Positions 12 through 5,876 of a DNA stretch of 12,668 nucleotides are shown here, piece after piece. Each line of letters starts with the position of its first letter. The first letter of the stretch is position 1. Source of the DNA: Campylobacteraceae bacterium (GTDB lineage: Bacteria; Campylobacterota; Campylobacteria; Campylobacterales; Campylobacteraceae); assembly GCA_031282125.1 (NCBI GenBank), contig JAITEH010000036.1:1-12668 (forward strand). The letters run 5' to 3'. The notes beneath the pieces are model-generated. The model ran no database searches, was not told where the DNA came from, and saw nothing but the letters and a program-made list of their open reading frames with translations. A program made the translations under genes and the position numbers.

Positions 12-39
12 TGGATTCCCGCCTACGCGGGAATGACGG
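12..39. repeat. dRS3-like palindromic repeat, copy 1
   Basis: A 28-bp element whose core is ATTCCC-N8-GGGAAT. The stem ATTCCCGC (15-22) pairs with GCGGGAAT (27-34) across a 4-base loop, and the flanks are TGGATTCC and GAATGACGG. The core matches the published neisserial dRS3 pattern ATTCCC(N8)GGGAAT; that likeness may be convergent. An inverted copy of the same length lies at 211-238. It is non-coding. Confidence 0.75.
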
Positions 40-70
40 AATGGGAGACATGTATTTCTTATGGAAGTTT

Positions 71-96
71 GTCGTTCGGTCGCAGGAATAACGGAA
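71..96. repeat. partial repeat related to the 396-464 element
   Basis: This 26-bp stretch matches 441-466 with about four mismatches (both begin TCGTTCGGT and end ACGGAA after a GAAT core). It looks like the right half of the longer element at 396-464, without the left half, so it may be a decayed or truncated copy. Confidence 0.5.
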
Positions 97-145
97 TACA
101 TGAAATTTTTAATTGCAAAAATGTTTGGATGTTTGATATTTTTCT

Positions 146-178
146 GGATTGCTTCGTCATTTCATTCCTCGCAATGAC
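146..178. repeat. palindromic repeat, GGATTGC...GCAATGAC type
   Basis: It opens with GGATTGC and closes with GCAATGAC, so ATTGC (148-152) can pair with GCAAT (171-175). Inside, GTCAT (156-160) can pair with ATGAC (174-178). The ends echo the other elements of the cluster (GGATT at one side, AATGAC at the other), so I treat it as the same loose family. Confidence 0.6.
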
Positions 179-210
179 AAAATGTGGTGTAAAATATTGT
201 CCCTCTTTCT

Positions 211-238
211 CCGTCATTCCCGTGAAAACTGGAATCCA
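211..238. repeat. dRS3-like repeat, inverted copy of 12-39
   Basis: Read on the opposite strand this 28-bp element has the same ends as copy 1: the first 12 bases CCGTCATTCCCG are the exact complement of 28-39, and the last 8, GGAATCCA, of 12-19. Only the 8 bases between differ, and the internal palindrome is weakened. Confidence 0.7.
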
Positions 239-278
239 AAGACTATATGAAAAAAGTTACATGGATATATAAATCAGT

Positions 279-491: not shown

Positions 492-830
492 TCAATAAAT
501 CATATGTTTAATTGTATATCTCAAAAAATCATCGAGAGGTTCATCATCATTTGTTCCATGCCAACAAGCATCGGATTTTGTTATATCTATAATAAGAAAA
601 AAATTGTCATACTCAATAATATCATATAAGGCATCTCTAACTTCTTTTATACCATATTCTGTGTATAAGATATGCAAATTATTGCCAAGATGAACAGAAC
701 TACCTTCTGTAAATTCCATTTTCTTAATGGCTTTTAGTACCAATTTTTTTTGCTTGTACTTGGATATATTTGTTTCTGTAGAAATATTATATGTAATGAG
801 AAAAGTACGAATTCTATTGACAGCTTGCAT
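492..830 (-). CDS. small Cas2/SinR-like ferredoxin-fold protein
   Basis: A 112-residue hypothetical protein. The predicted order is strand (RTFLITYNIS, about 8-17), helix (KKLVLKAIKKM), a strand pair around SSVHLGNNLHILYTEY (44-59), helix (IKEVRDALYDII), strand (DNFFLIIDIT) and a C-terminal CWHG...DDFL segment. This beta-alpha-beta-beta-alpha-beta order, and the RDAL...DNFFLI...W-G spacing, recall the small proteins annotated as 'SinR family', which have a Cas2/VapD-like fold. That link is from memory and weak at residue level. No cas1 or CRISPR array is nearby, so a role in adaptation is not supported; a nuclease- or toxin-like role is possible but unproven. The start has a good ribosome site (AAGGA, 7 bases upstream). 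It stands alone beside a repeat cluster, and its codons look more AT-rich than those of its neighbours, which hints at transfer. Confidence 0.7.
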   Translation of the reverse strand: MQAVNRIRTFLITYNISTETNISKYKQKKLVLKAIKKMEFTEGSSVHLGNNLHILYTEYGIKEVRDALYDIIEYDNFFLIIDITKSDACWHGTNDDEPLDDFLRYTIKHMIY

Positions 831-947: not shown

Positions 948-1793
948 TTATTTCAAAAGAGTCGGTTTTATTTTGTGTGCGTTCAAACCCAAAGTTTTTT
1001 TATCAGTAACGCCGACTGCCATCAAAGCCACCTGCGGCAGTGTCAGAAGATATATAGGTATCTCGCGTCCCATCGCGCTTTCTATCTCTTTTCGCTTTCT
1101 ATCCATCAAGTAAAATATGCGCGTATCGCTTATTATCAAAAAATCCGCGCCGTTATCGAACGCATCCAAAAGAATACTGCCAGCCATTTTAAAGGCGATT
1201 TCGGGCGCATATCTCAGCAGTTCATAACCGCTTGGATTGAACTCTCTGCTGAATTTCACACGTTTTAATTTTATAGTATCGAAAAATCTGTCCAACTCTA
1301 TATTTGAGTGCCCGTCAATCCTTATATCAGCTCCATAGTAAAACGCGCCTTTGAAATTGTCAAACGGGTGTTTGAGGTGGTTTTTGATACGCTCTGTCGC
1401 ATCTTTACTTGTGATAAAGGCATTGATATGTAAAACATCAGCCAAAAAGTCGGTTGTAAGCTCAAGCGGATTTAAAATCTGCTCCATTTCCTCTTTTATA
1501 TCGGCATTATTTGTGACAAAGTTTTTTGCATTTATGAGGGACAGATAAGAGCTTGCGTCGTAAGTAACGATAGTTTCGCCGTTTTTACCTGCCTGCGCCA
1601 AAATCACGATAAATCTCTTGGCGAAAAGTTTTGGATTTAGTAAGTATTGTTCGGCGCCTATATCGCTTACATTCGTATCTATGGTGTAATTTGCGATGTA
1701 AAACTCTCTCAAAAAAGCTTCTCCTGCGTTTTTGAAAGGTTTGGTAACAAGTTCTTTATTCATTTTGTCAAAAATAATATAATCTGTCATCAT
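948..1793 (-). CDS. cysteine-free HdrB/SdhE-like protein
   Basis: A 281-residue soluble protein resembling the CCG-domain subunit HdrB (also SdhE/MfrE of Campylobacterota). The similarity is clearest from about residue 120 to the end. There is a YYGAD (152-156) where the family has YYGCH, NPSG (186-189) where CCG would be, then a helix and NGADFLIISDTRIFYL (214-229) where the family has a GAD-[VI]-V-x-CPxC type motif. The tail has IPIYLLTLPQVALMAVG and LGLNAHKI, matching the HdrB ending. The whole protein has no cysteine, so it cannot bind the usual clusters; the N-terminal third is shortened. It follows the FrdB-like gene by 6 bases, with AAGG ahead of two tandem ATG codons (1793 or 1790). 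Function unknown; a structural or scaffold partner of a redox complex is my inference. NCBI uses the name 'HdrB C-terminal domain-containing protein' for proteins of this kind, as I recall. Confidence 0.75.
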   Translation of the reverse strand: MMTDYIIFDKMNKELVTKPFKNAGEAFLREFYIANYTIDTNVSDIGAEQYLLNPKLFAKRFIVILAQAGKNGETIVTYDASSYLSLINAKNFVTNNADIKEEMEQILNPLELTTDFLADVLHINAFITSKDATERIKNHLKHPFDNFKGAFYYGADIRIDGHSNIELDRFFDTIKLKRVKFSREFNPSGYELLRYAPEIAFKMAGSILLDAFDNGADFLIISDTRIFYLMDRKRKEIESAMGREIPIYLLTLPQVALMAVGVTDKKTLGLNAHKIKPTLLK

Positions 1794-1799
1794 CCAGCC

Positions 1800-2495
1800 T
1801 TAAAAAATTAAACTTTTGGCATATTTTGCTTCACGTTTTGTCGTAGAATTGGCATCAGGGACATACTGCAAAATTTGCATTTTCAGTTTTGCTATACTCT
1901 CTTCTATATTTGCGGCTTTTGAGTATAAAATCATAGCGTTTTTAATGGAAGTATGAAGCCACACACCGCGTTTTTCATCCGCGCAAATCCGCAGTATCTC
2001 ATCTCTTTTGTGAGGATATTTTTCAATCAAAAACAGCGCGAAAAGCATGAACGAATCGCCGAAATATTCGCGCTCAAACTCAATCGTCGGCGAAGTGTAG
2101 TAGTATGAAACAAGCTCTTCGTATTTTTCTTTGTCGTTGTTTTCGATGAAAGGTTTTAAATAATCAAGCTGTTTTAAAAAAGCTCTTGTGTCTATGTCGA
2201 GGTCGTGCACAGTGTAAAATTCATTTAAAGGCTCAAGCGTGAATTTGTCCGTTTTTAACAATTTGACAATGGTTTTTACGTTTGTGCTTATGGAAGTAAC
2301 AAGCGAATTGACGCGTATACCTATGAATTTATTTGATGAAAAGGTGAAAGAGTTGTCCTGTTTTTTGATACCATTTAAGATATCCAGCAAAGTGCCGCCG
2401 CTTGCATCTACGCCTACTTCATACTCTTTGTAGTACGGCAGTAAGTCGTTTGCGGCATTGAAACGAAATACATTTGCGGTAATAAGATAGGACAT
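1800..2495 (-). CDS. FrdB/SdhB-like protein without Fe-S ligands (DUF5644-like)
   Basis: A 231-residue protein whose outline follows the iron-sulfur subunit of fumarate reductase or succinate dehydrogenase. Residues 21-45 (YYKEYEVGVD...TLLDILNGIK) match the beta-grasp start of FrdB. FTLEPLNEFYTVHDLDIDTRAFL (85-107) matches the FrdB stretch 'L.NFP..RDLVVD...F'. SPTIEFEREYFGDSFMLFAL (135-154) lines up with the region after the CxxC-x2-C motif, and EKRGVW (174-179) with the GVW before the last cluster motif. All ligand positions are replaced; the only cysteine is C171, off any cluster motif. The fold is probably kept and electron transfer lost. I recall the N-terminal part as Pfam DUF5644, found in Campylobacterota. 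The start is set by a strong AGGAGG site. First gene of a two-gene operon with the HdrB-like gene. Confidence 0.75.
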   Translation of the reverse strand: MSYLITANVFRFNAANDLLPYYKEYEVGVDASGGTLLDILNGIKKQDNSFTFSSNKFIGIRVNSLVTSISTNVKTIVKLLKTDKFTLEPLNEFYTVHDLDIDTRAFLKQLDYLKPFIENNDKEKYEELVSYYYTSPTIEFEREYFGDSFMLFALFLIEKYPHKRDEILRICADEKRGVWLHTSIKNAMILYSKAANIEESIAKLKMQILQYVPDANSTTKREAKYAKSLIF

Positions 2496-2635: not shown

Positions 2636-2663
2636 ACCAAACACTGTTTTTTTGGAGAAATTT

Positions 2664-3491
2664 TTGGATAAAGAGTCCTTTATCATTTCACAGTTTAAAA
2701 ATGCTTTCACGGGCGACGACGGTGCGGTTGTCGGCAAATGGATATATTCAAAAGATCTTTTTTGCGAAGATACGCACTTTAAAAGCGGCTGGCTTAGCCT
2801 TTATCAAATCGCGCGAAAAGCCGTGCTTGTCAATCTCTCCGACGCTGTAGCCATGAATGCCAATCCCAAATACGCTCTTCTTGGCGTTGGCATACCAAGC
2901 GATTTTAGTTTGCAGCAAATAGAAGAGTTATCAAAAGGTTTTATCGAAACAGCCCGCGAATATAATGTAAAAATTATCGGCGGAGATACCATATCAAGCG
3001 ATAAAATCGTAATTTCCGTAACGATTATCGCCAAAAAACGCAAACACACGCTTTATCGCTCAGGTCTAAAAAAGGGTGATATTTTGGCATATACGGGCGT
3101 TTTGGGGCAGAGCAAATGCGCTCTTCAAAAGCTCTTAAACGGCGGCGGCGTTTCGGAAGATTCGCGTTTTGTTGAGCCTGTTTTGAGGGCTTCGTTCATC
3201 AAAAAAGCAGCCAAATATCTGCGCTGCGGGCTTGATATATCTGACGGTCTTAGCAAGGATTTGTCGCGCCTTTGCGCTATTAGTTCTCTTGGCGTAAAAT
3301 TTGATAAAAAGATAGACAAAGATACTCTTTGCAGCGGCGAAGAGTATGAGATGCTGATAGCATTTGCTCCAGAAAACAAAGATAAGATTGTGCGCATCGC
3401 CGAAAAGACAAAAACACCGCTTAATATATTTGCCAAAGCCTGCGGGGGAGAGTATTTGAGCGAATGTGAAGAGCACCATTTTAAAGGATAA
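2664..3491 (+). CDS. thiL: thiamine-monophosphate kinase
   Basis: ThiL phosphorylates thiamine monophosphate to the cofactor thiamine diphosphate in the cytosol. Motifs of the PurM/ThiL ATP-binding fold are present: GDDGAVV (17-23), DLFCEDTHF (31-39) in place of the usual D-x-x-VEGVHF, NLSDAVAMNANP (57-68), GGDT (106-109) and LDISDGLSKDL (190-200). At 275 residues it is shorter than the E. coli enzyme (325), as I expect in this phylum. I chose the TTG at 2664 because GGAG (2654-2657) sits 6 bases upstream; another in-frame TTG at 2652 overlaps no ribosome site. truD follows after 5 bases, the same order as in Campylobacter jejuni. Confidence 0.93.
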   Translation: MDKESFIISQFKNAFTGDDGAVVGKWIYSKDLFCEDTHFKSGWLSLYQIARKAVLVNLSDAVAMNANPKYALLGVGIPSDFSLQQIEELSKGFIETAREYNVKIIGGDTISSDKIVISVTIIAKKRKHTLYRSGLKKGDILAYTGVLGQSKCALQKLLNGGGVSEDSRFVEPVLRASFIKKAAKYLRCGLDISDGLSKDLSRLCAISSLGVKFDKKIDKDTLCSGEEYEMLIAFAPENKDKIVRIAEKTKTPLNIFAKACGGEYLSECEEHHFKG

Positions 3492-3496
3492 ATATT

Positions 3497-4591
3497 TTGA
3501 ATAGACTATTTTTTTTAAATCACACAGCCATCAAACAAGCTCATTTTAATAAAAATGCAAGCGATTTTGTCGTCAATGAGATACCGCTTTATGAATTCAG
3601 CGGCAGCGGCGAACATCTTGTGCTGCATACGCGCAAGAAAGATTTGACTACATGGCAGATGCTGCGTATTTTCAGTGATACAAGCGGTGCAAAAATGCGT
3701 GATTTCGGCTATGCGGGACTAAAAGACAAAGACGGCATGACAACGCAATATGTGAGTATACACAAAAGTCATGCAAAGGCTTTTGAAAATTTTTCGCACC
3801 CAAATATAAAAATTTTAAGCGCTGTATATCACAACAATAAGATAAAAACGGGGCATTTAAAAGGCAACCGTTTTTTTGTAAGATTAAAAAAAGTCCTTCC
3901 TGCCGACGCTTTGAAACTTTCGCAAATATGCATGAAAATATCCAAAGAGGGATATCCGAACTATTTTGGTTATCAGCGTTTTGGTAAAGACGGCGATAAT
4001 TTCGAGCTTGGCAAGGCGATACTAAAAGGTGAAAAACGAGAAAGAAATCCAAAACTTAGAGAGTTTTTGATAAGCGCATATCAGAGTGAACTTTTCAATC
4101 AATGGCTTGCCAAAAGAGTGCAGATAAGTAAGTTTTTTGCAGATTTTAATCCATCAGAGCTTCAAAATGCGCTGAAATGGAGCAAAGATACGATAAAAGA
4201 GGTGATAAAACAGCCGTATTTTTTTAAACTCTTAAAAGGCGACGTATGCTGTCACTATCCTCATGGAAAGGCTTTTTTGTGCGAAGATTTAGATGCTGAA
4301 AGTGTTAGGATAACGGATAAAAATATAGCCATTACTGGTTTTTTGGCGGGCGAAAATGCGATAAGAGCGCAAGGGTTAGCTGGAGAGATAGAGAGCGAAG
4401 TTTTTGCCCAGACGGAGAGTTTTTTGAGTCAAATGAACGGCTCCAGACGCTATGCGTGGAATTTCGCAGAAGATTTTGAATACAAATACAAAGAAGAAGA
4501 GGCGTGGTTTGAGATGAGTTTCTCGCTTACGAAAGGCTCATACGCTACGGTTGTACTGGAAGAGATACTGCATAAAAATTTAGATGAGTAA
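3497..4591 (+). CDS. truD: tRNA pseudouridine(13) synthase TruD
   Basis: TruD converts uridine 13 in the D-arm of certain tRNAs to pseudouridine. The family motif GYAGLKDKDGMTTQYVSI (71-88) is intact, with D77 as the likely catalytic aspartate in GLKD. Other family marks are GNRFFVRLKK (near 123-132), PNYFGYQRFGKDGDN (near 153-167) and REFLISAYQSELFNQWL (near 188-204). At 364 residues it has the usual length. The start is TTG at 3497, preceded by AAAGGA 8 bases upstream. It is translated in tandem with thiL. No clear terminator follows; about 115 AT-rich bases separate it from the next gene. Confidence 0.95.
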   Translation: MNRLFFLNHTAIKQAHFNKNASDFVVNEIPLYEFSGSGEHLVLHTRKKDLTTWQMLRIFSDTSGAKMRDFGYAGLKDKDGMTTQYVSIHKSHAKAFENFSHPNIKILSAVYHNNKIKTGHLKGNRFFVRLKKVLPADALKLSQICMKISKEGYPNYFGYQRFGKDGDNFELGKAILKGEKRERNPKLREFLISAYQSELFNQWLAKRVQISKFFADFNPSELQNALKWSKDTIKEVIKQPYFFKLLKGDVCCHYPHGKAFLCEDLDAESVRITDKNIAITGFLAGENAIRAQGLAGEIESEVFAQTESFLSQMNGSRRYAWNFAEDFEYKYKEEEAWFEMSFSLTKGSYATVVLEEILHKNLDE

Positions 4592-4707: not shown

Positions 4708-5100
4708 ATGCCTAAAATTAATCGTTATGTAGATATAGACACGGTCGAAAGAGAAGCCAAAAAGGACTATATAGATAGACACTCTCCGTTTGTCCGCTGT
4801 GCGGCGTCTGCTAAAAAAGGTGAGAAATTTGCCGTAACAGTCAAAGTTGGAAATGAGTACTCTCATCCAGATGATTTTGACCATTATATAGCTAATGTAG
4901 CTTTGTATAACAGTGAAACGCTTGTCGCAAGAGCTGATTTTGTAGCAGGCACGCTTGGCGGTCAGGGCGCGAAAGGACAGTTGGAAGTAACTTTCAATAT
5001 AGTTCCGACAACTTCAAAATTAAATCTCACAGCTCATGCATACTGTACAAAACACGGCTTATGGGAGAGTGACCCTGTAAGCGTTGAGGTAGCAGAGTAA
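4708..5100 (+). CDS. superoxide reductase, one-domain (neelaredoxin type)
   Basis: A 130-residue cytosolic enzyme that reduces superoxide to hydrogen peroxide at a mononuclear Fe(His)4(Cys) centre, an alternative to superoxide dismutase common in microaerophiles and anaerobes. All five ligands are visible: H25 (RHSPF), H53 (SHPDD), H59 (DHY), C113 and H116 (YCTKHGLWES). There is no N-terminal desulforedoxin domain with four cysteines, so it is the class II form. Unusually, the conserved Glu-Lys-His of the catalytic loop is Asp-Arg-His (23-25). A very strong ribosome site (AAGGAGG) precedes the ATG and a strong terminator follows, so it is probably a highly expressed single-gene unit. A TAATAT near 4673-4678 is a possible but weak -10. 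The fold superficially recalls SoxZ, but the iron ligands exclude that. Confidence 0.92.
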   Translation: MPKINRYVDIDTVEREAKKDYIDRHSPFVRCAASAKKGEKFAVTVKVGNEYSHPDDFDHYIANVALYNSETLVARADFVAGTLGGQGAKGQLEVTFNIVPTTSKLNLTAHAYCTKHGLWESDPVSVEVAE

Positions 5101-5216: not shown

Positions 5217-5876
5217 ATGTCTAAACTTGAAACTCTAAAAATGTTAAAAGAGCTATATATCTACCGTTCGTATGGATTTACATACTATAAAAAACGCGAG
5301 ATTATGCCCGAAAAACCAAGCGCTTCCATACCAAACAGTATGGATGAATTGCGAAAAAACGTTTTTGGCTGTTTTTTGTGTACGCTGTGCAAAACGCGTA
5401 AAAATGTAGTGTTCGGTGAGGGTAATCTAAACGCTAAAGTTATGTTTGTGGGCGAGGGTCCTGGGTTTAATGAAGATTTGCAGGGAAGGCCGTTCGTGGG
5501 TAATGCAGGAGAACTTCTGACAAAAATGATAGAAAATGTACTAAAAATAAAACGAAGTGAAGTTTATATCGCAAATATCGTCAAATGCCGCCCGCCTGAA
5601 AATCGTACGCCAACTCCCGAGGAAGCAAATATGTGCAAGCCGTATCTTTTTAAACAAATAGAGATAGTATCTCCGCAAATCATCGTAGCGCTCGGCAATA
5701 CAAGCTATCATTATCTAACAGGTGACGAGCGCGGTATCACAAAGGTGCGCGGCGAAATCATAGATTATAAAAATGCTAAACTTATACCGACTTTTCATCC
5801 AAGCTATCTTCTAAGAAACGAATCTGCTAAAAAAGAGGCTTATCAAGACATGCTAAGAGTAAAGGCTTTATTATGA
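5217..5876 (+). CDS. family 4 uracil-DNA glycosylase (Fe-S)
   Basis: Removes uracil arising from cytosine deamination or dUTP incorporation; first step of base excision repair. Four cysteines at 55, 58, 124 and 140 have the spacing of the [4Fe-4S] ligands in the Thermus family 4 enzyme (C-x2-C-x65-C-x15-C). C52 is an extra one. The catalytic loop GEGPGFNED (79-87), the NIVKCRPPENR segment (120-130) and the DNA-intercalation motif HPSYLLR (194-200) are all kept. At 219 residues it carries about 50 extra residues ahead of the first cluster cysteine. The ATG has only a weak ribosome site; a later start at 5241 (Met9) is possible. The stop overlaps the next start by 4 bases (ATGA), so the two are cotranslated. 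Confidence 0.92.
   Translation: MSKLETLKMLKELYIYRSYGFTYYKKREIMPEKPSASIPNSMDELRKNVFGCFLCTLCKTRKNVVFGEGNLNAKVMFVGEGPGFNEDLQGRPFVGNAGELLTKMIENVLKIKRSEVYIANIVKCRPPENRTPTPEEANMCKPYLFKQIEIVSPQIIVALGNTSYHYLTGDERGITKVRGEIIDYKNAKLIPTFHPSYLLRNESAKKEAYQDMLRVKALL

What the first reader, a model, noticed from the sequence alone, without database searches (positions are those of the whole stretch)
948..2495. Two-gene operon of FrdB-like and HdrB-like proteins that have lost their Fe-S ligands
Both proteins keep the outline of redox subunits that work together in fumarate/succinate and heterodisulfide reductases, yet one has no cysteine and the other has one, off any cluster motif. The genes are 6 bases apart and intact, so selection seems to have kept the pair after electron transfer was lost. 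They may form a redox-inactive mimic of an SdhB-SdhE unit, for example a regulator, assembly factor or scaffold for the real complex.
Basis: partly seen in the sequence, partly recalled or inferred. Interest (0 to 1): 0.75.

Follow-up and report, generated by a model that had tools for sequence, protein, structure and literature searches.

The report
Cluster-less twin of a respiratory SdhB-SdhE pair
Two neighbouring genes in a relative of Campylobacter encode an old duplicate of the iron-sulphur and anchor subunits of a succinate/fumarate enzyme that has lost its metal-binding sites yet is kept by selection, perhaps as a non-redox helper of that enzyme.

Summary
Window 1800-2495(-) encodes a 231-aa FrdB/SdhB-like protein (one Cys) and 948-1793(-) a 281-aa HdrB/SdhE-like protein (none), six bases apart. 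Both match an uncharacterised solved H. pylori protein (PDB 3KWL), where they are fused, and Pfam DUF5644 and HdrB-like_C.

It is not local decay. At least 136 of 298 genomes of the order score as carriers, as two genes or one fusion. No sequence examined keeps a full ligand set; dN/dS is about 0.1; the picked forms make one clade. Profiles show full-length paralogy to SdhB (E 2e-34) and the SdhE anchor (E 2e-37) of the 'non-classical' SdhABE enzyme. In 14 of 60 loci (four families; not a random sample) it lies directly upstream of sdhA-sdhB-sdhE. The window lineage keeps the site; FrdCAB was found there, SdhABE was not.

Best reading: a non-redox docking or assembly factor for the SdhA/FrdA flavoprotein; the SdhE/SDHAF2 flavinylation factor was found in 0 of 298 genomes. 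This function is inferred. Against it: 20 of 20 loci chosen for lacking the pair have sdhABE, the factor is also missing from most controls with SdhA, and one genome keeps the pair with no detectable complex II. Structure prediction could not be run.

The parts
1800..2495 (-). FrdB/SdhB-like protein without Fe-S ligands (Fer2_3 + DUF5644), 231 aa, first gene of the pair
948..1793 (-). HdrB/SdhE-anchor-like protein without cysteines (HdrB-like_C), 281 aa, second gene of the pair
1794..1799 (-). 6-base gap between the two genes
2652..3491 (+). divergent thiL-like gene (AIRS family by Pfam; the name thiL is recalled), recurrent neighbour of the pair and of sdhABE in relatives
3497..4591 (+). truD-like gene, recurrent neighbour (name recalled; homology across loci)
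4708..5100 (+). superoxide reductase/desulfoferrodoxin family gene, which follows the pair (same genus) or sdhE (some other families) in relatives
5217..5876 (+). uracil-DNA glycosylase superfamily gene, further shared synteny

Best explanation
The pair is an ancient paralogue of the SdhB-SdhE (HdrB-like anchor) module of the type-E SdhABE enzyme of this order. It lost the [2Fe-2S] loop and the other cluster ligands and was kept. Shown: paralogy, one clade, ligand loss, purifying selection, an operon position before sdhABE in several families, frequent fusion of the two halves. Inferred: it docks on the SdhA/FrdA flavoprotein at the face normally taken by SdhB/FrdB, holds the immature flavoprotein during FAD loading or covalent attachment and complex assembly, and then yields to the real SdhB/FrdB. 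That would be the job done elsewhere by the unrelated SdhE/SDHAF2 factor. In the window organism the only client detected would be FrdA of FrdCAB.
For: Full-length profile homology to SdhB (E 1.8e-34, 219 columns) and SdhE anchor (E 2e-37, 279 columns), with gene order F-H equal to sdhB-sdhE. 40 picked ligand-less forms are one side of a 100/100 branch against 16 SdhB. Same strand, under 500 bases upstream of sdhA, in 14 of 60 loci in 4 families; divergent neighbour in 2; within 3 kb in 3. The ferredoxin-like domain keeps the SdhB consensus best (46% of columns, against 31% in the helical domain). PF03937 SdhE/SDHAF2 found in 0 of 298 genomes while E. coli and Caulobacter ring; SdhA/FrdA at E<=1e-90 in 297 of 298, 294 over cut-off. 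FrdA of the window's own genome has RSHSAAAQGG, read from recall as the covalent-FAD site. The known factor binds the FrdB site on FrdA, and deleting FrdB/SdhB lowers flavinylation (PMC5773532, passages; the site overlap also in PMC9557727, passages). dN/dS about 0.1.
Against: No binding or activity data. 20 of 20 loci chosen around sdhA hits of genomes without the pair hold sdhB and sdhE and no pair. 27 of 28 genomes without an F match also lack H though all 28 have FrdA/SdhA. G128 keeps both genes but no FrdA/SdhA over cut-off and no dhsB over cut-off was found (99% complete draft, 110 contigs). Lack of PF03937 is common: it rings in 2 of 14 control genomes, SdhA/FrdA in 11 of 14 (6 over cut-off). 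In Wolinella MFR one residue exchange sufficed for covalent FAD (PMC2680327, passages); organisms without the factor can self-flavinylate (PMC9557727, PMC12727194, passages). The operon position may be a trace of tandem duplication. 40 of 60 loci have no sdhA in the stretch fetched, and the 60 are not a random sample.
Confidence: 0.4

Rival explanations
1. The pair took up a new task unrelated to complex II, for example a ligand-binding sensor or scaffold. Its place before sdhABE is only the scar of tandem duplication.
For: Kept in lineages where no SdhABE was found, including the window genus, and in G128 without detected complex II; beside a murA-like gene in L102 and L111 (name recalled). 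H273, F218 and F227 of the HdrB-like protein are conserved in the family but not in the SdhE anchor. PMC9570263 (abstract and one table passage seen) lists HP0468 among proteins conserved in Helicobacter species with sheathed flagella and underrepresented in species without.
Against: Several of the most conserved residues (D213, D217, D231, R243, G261) are also conserved in the true SdhE anchor, so they look like inherited scaffold. The operon position recurs in four families.
Confidence: 0.35
2. The pair is an inhibitor or alternative non-electron-transferring cap of FrdA/SdhA that sets how much flavoprotein enters the membrane complex.
For: Same docking logic as the best explanation; [quoted passage not shown]
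Against: No regulatory data; fusion and position before sdhABE fit a helper equally well.
Confidence: 0.15
3. The pair still carries a redox or metal cofactor held by other residues.
For: Folds descend from cofactor binders; one ligand column of F has Cys in 18 of 97 sequences and two of H in 11 and 18 of 95.
Against: No full ligand set in any of the 97 and 95 sequences: several ligand columns never hold Cys, one [2Fe-2S] column is a gap in 97 of 97 and one cubane column in 96 of 97.
Confidence: 0.06
4. The genes are decaying relics of sdhBE.
For: No SdhABE was found in the window genus genomes searched.
Against: dN/dS 0.08-0.17, like neighbouring thiL; F matches in 12 of 13 and H in 13 of 13 same-genus genomes, one H only a contig-edge fragment; the paralogue coexists with sdhABE in other families.
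Confidence: 0.02

Closest known systems
PDB 3KWL, H. pylori protein (DUF5644 + HdrB-like_C), function unknown; probably HP0468 (inferred)
   Same: Both window proteins match it, in the same order
   Different: One fused chain of 514 residues; the window has two genes
SdhB and SdhE anchor of SdhABE / 8-methylmenaquinol:fumarate reductase (MfrB, MfrE)
   Same: Full-length profile homology, same gene order
   Different: No full set of Fe-S ligands; no sdhA beside it in the window
FrdB of FrdCAB
   Same: Distant homology over both domains (E 2.4e-6 with five FrdB of the window genus)
   Different: Weaker than to SdhB; that FrdB has 11 Cys
SdhE/SDHAF2 flavinylation factor (PF03937)
   Same: Proposed role only: binding the flavoprotein at the FrdB face
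   Different: No PF03937 match in the pair; found in 0 of 298 genomes of the order

Membership tests
SdhB/FrdB iron-sulphur subunit | Ferredoxin-like plus helical two-domain sequence | tested here: met
   Fer2_3 over cut-off; profile match over 219 columns
SdhB/FrdB iron-sulphur subunit | Cys ligands of the [2Fe-2S] and cubane clusters | tested here: not met
   12 invariant Cys of 39 SdhB are Cys in 0-3 of 97 sequences per column, one column 18 of 97
SdhB/FrdB iron-sulphur subunit | Encoded with the flavoprotein subunit | tested here: inconclusive
   Directly upstream of sdhA in 14 of 60 loci, not in the window
HdrB / SdhE anchor | Homology over the full length of both halves | tested here: met
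   Profile match over 279 columns
HdrB / SdhE anchor | CCG-motif cysteines | tested here: not met
   10 invariant Cys of 38 SdhE anchors are Cys in 0-18 of 95 sequences per column; six columns never
DUF5644 / HdrB-like_C family (3KWL) | Matches above the Pfam cut-offs | tested here: met
   55.2 against 25 bits and 57.3 against 33.4 bits
SdhE/SDHAF2 flavinylation factor | PF03937 domain | tested here: not met
   No match in the pair up to E 1; 0 of 298 genomes
SdhE/SDHAF2 flavinylation factor | Binds the flavoprotein and promotes covalent FAD | not testable with these tools
   Needs biochemistry

The most novel reading that the evidence does not exclude
The pair is a complex II maturation (flavinylation/assembly) factor of this order: a duplicated SdhB-SdhE module that shed its clusters and became a chaperone for SdhA/FrdA, independently of SdhE/SDHAF2.
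Probability: 0.2. Interest if true: 0.8.

Novelty: new variant of a known kind. Interest (0 to 1): 0.58.

Why it matters
In 298 genomes of the order the known flavinylation factor was not found, while the 45 SdhA/FrdA-type proteins that matched my motif pattern all have the histidine read as the covalent-FAD site. How these flavoproteins mature is open; they may simply self-flavinylate. A dead copy of the enzyme's own electron-transfer module, placed before sdhABE in several families, is a concrete candidate that one deletion and one pull-down can test. It also suggests a meaning for two Pfam families (DUF5644, HdrB-like_C) and for a solved H. pylori structure listed as of unknown function.

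Tried and rejected
Local decay was tested and rejected. Co-occurrence with SdhA/FrdA is uninformative because 297 of 298 genomes have a match. In the phylum-level search the genomes listed are of the same order (two without a match were not listed), so nothing is said about presence elsewhere. The one genome-contig scan found 7 close relatives. Literature: DUF5644 in 1 paper; 3KWL with Helicobacter pylori in 1; HP0468, Cj1459, jhp0420 or WS0114 in 2, both by HP0468 (the last two tags were guesses); HdrB-like with Campylobacter in 0; a broad search gave 635 papers, 15 listed, none read; four of five terms on a ligand-less SdhB paralogue gave 0. Supplements could not be searched. 'SoxZ' and 'PF13458-like' in script output were wrong or placeholder labels: Pfam calls the first desulfoferrodoxin and gives the second no match over cut-off. 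One search printed a wrong gap for L046; one search repeats the count correctly.

Full report
Observation. Two intact minus-strand ORFs lie at 1800-2495 (231 aa, one Cys) and 948-1793 (281 aa, no Cys), six bases apart. The first matches Fer2_3 (29.5 bits, cut-off 27), DUF5644 (55.2 bits) and SdhB/FrdB models and structures. The second matches HdrB-like_C (57.3 bits) and, below their curated cut-offs, HdrB models. The best solved relative of both is PDB 3KWL, a 514-residue chain. PMC3397514 (table passage seen) lists 3KWL among H. pylori proteins of unknown function; PMC9570263 (table passage and abstract seen) lists HP0468 as DUF5644. That 3KWL is HP0468 is my inference.

Nature of the pair. 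Profile comparison aligns 64 FrdB-like sequences with 11 SdhB over 219 columns (E 1.8e-34) and 58 HdrB-like sequences with 11 SdhE anchors over 279 columns (E 2e-37). Five FrdB of the window genus are more distant (E 2.4e-6). In a tree of 56 picked rows, 40 ligand-less forms and 16 SdhB fall on the two sides of one 100/100 branch; one row of each kind is a long branch. The tree has no outside root, so it shows one clade against SdhB, not the direction. I read the pair as an old paralogue of sdhB-sdhE. 'SdhE anchor' here is the HdrB-like subunit, not the unrelated SdhE/SDHAF2 flavinylation factor.

Ligands. Twelve Cys are invariant in 39 SdhB. In 97 unique FrdB-like sequences Cys occurs there 1, 0, 1, 3, 0, 0, 0, 0, 0, 0, 0 and 18 times. 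Ten Cys are invariant in 38 SdhE anchors. In 95 HdrB-like sequences Cys occurs there 0, 11, 0, 0, 0, 4, 0, 18, 0 and 1 times. Some of these columns are gaps in many sequences: one [2Fe-2S] column is a gap in all 97, and the first five CCG columns are gaps in about 40 of 95. Scattered Cys elsewhere are common, up to 10 per protein.

Selection and spread. Against same-genus copies, dN/dS is 0.08-0.12 for F in four comparisons (a fifth was saturated), 0.09-0.17 for H in five, and 0.12-0.15 for thiL in four. Most dS values exceed 0.8, so the ratios are rough. F was found in 12 of 13 same-genus genomes and H in 13 of 13, one of them a contig-edge fragment. In 298 genomes of the order 270 match the F profile, but this includes true SdhB. 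I did not inspect each of the 136. At least 42 of 97 unique F proteins also carry H. Of the 28 genomes without an F match (20 printed; 8 deduced by comparing the lists), 27 lack H too; G301 has partial H matches and a weak F match with the later profile.

Context. I looked for sdhA in 60 loci (59 fetched plus the window). In 14 the ligand-less gene lies on the same strand under 500 bases upstream of sdhA: L046, L091, L093-L100, L108, L110, L112, L126, in families f14 (7), f6 (3), f7 (2) and f9 (2). In 2 (L088, L089; f16) it is the divergent neighbour. In 3 (L106, L107, L114; f18) it is within 3 kb, with truD and thiL between. In 1 (L049) an sdhA is 8 kb away. In 40 there was none in the stretch, some of which are short contigs. 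A 360-bit flavoprotein in L044 and L122 was left out. The 60 are not a random sample: I had seen the flavoprotein behind L025/L046 before choosing more of f14, and the nearness in G218 and G186 before fetching them. The neighbours could also reflect one inherited arrangement, not 14 events. In 20 further stretches, chosen around sdhA hits of genomes that looked free of the pair, 20 of 20 hold SdhB and SdhE and none holds F or H; in L134 and L138 the order is truD-thiL, sdhA-sdhB-sdhE, superoxide reductase, UDG. The same-genus loci L056 and L057 read thiL, F-H, superoxide reductase, UDG. A simple history is that the pair sat between thiL and sdhA and that sdhABE was later lost in the window lineage. 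In seven genomes of the genus, the window's own (56% complete) included, FrdA lies with FrdB and an FrdC-like gene (name recalled) and no SdhA of SdhABE was found at E<=1e-60; two of them, G001 and G007, hold a further flavoprotein.

Mechanism. Shown: paralogy, loss of ligands, selection, fusion, and an operon link with sdhABE in four families. Inferred: docking on SdhA/FrdA. The known flavinylation factor binds FrdA at the FrdB surface, and deleting FrdB/SdhB lowers flavinylation, which its authors say allows other explanations (PMC5773532, passages; site overlap also PMC9557727, passages). That factor (PF03937) is found in 0 of 298 genomes here, with E. coli and Caulobacter as positive controls, and 297 of 298 hold an SdhA/FrdA match. 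The ferredoxin-like domain keeps the SdhB consensus at 46% of columns against 31% in the helical domain; that this domain faces the flavoprotein is general knowledge of complex II.

Against it. PF03937 also fails to ring in 12 of 14 controls, while SdhA/FrdA rings in 11 of 14 (6 over cut-off), so its absence alone proves no substitute. The pair is absent from many genomes with SdhABE or Frd. G128 has both genes but only a 484-aa flavoprotein under cut-off, NadB-like by recall, and no dhsB over cut-off. In Wolinella, A86H alone gave covalent FAD in MFR (PMC2680327, passages); whether Wolinella has the pair was not tested. Self-flavinylation is documented or proposed elsewhere (PMC9557727, passages; PMC12727194, abstract, section 13 and passages, which does not hold the word Campylobacter). 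So a strict requirement is unlikely. PMC6090961 (passages) says HP0468 is upregulated by hydrogen, citing another paper, and is a gastric cancer association hit of unknown function; PMC9570263 links it by distribution to sheathed flagella. Neither decides.

Limits. Structure prediction and therefore fold search could not be run: the queue was full at 14 attempts. No complex could be modelled. Distribution outside the order was not tested. Labels f and g are the tool's codes.

Noticed in passing
L110 2523-4148; L108 10216-10578; L139 6164-6475: In family f7 a DUF309 domain is fused to the front of the ligand-less protein (L110); a homologous ORF lies just upstream of it in L108 and upstream of sdhA in L139.
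   Followed up: partly
L157 (genome G128) 679-2180: A 1.5-Mb draft genome keeps both genes of the pair although no FrdA/SdhA or dhsB match over cut-off was found.
   Followed up: partly
L155 1486-3126; L156 1393-3024; L044 4306-5991; L122 4241-5938: A further SdhA/FrdA-like flavoprotein of about 545-566 aa; in L044, L155 and L156 it lies beside an ORF that looks like a nif-type regulator (recalled). No Fe-S partner was looked for.
   Followed up: no
L102 1923-3035; L111 9924-11048: In family f9 the fused gene lies next to a murA-like gene (name recalled), with no sdhA in the stretch.
   Followed up: no
window 492-830 (-): 112-aa ORF near the pair with no Pfam match at E 0.01.
   Followed up: no
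window 33-272 (+): The ORF contains VIPVKTGIQ, which resembles the translation of a dispersed repeat (from recall).
   Followed up: no
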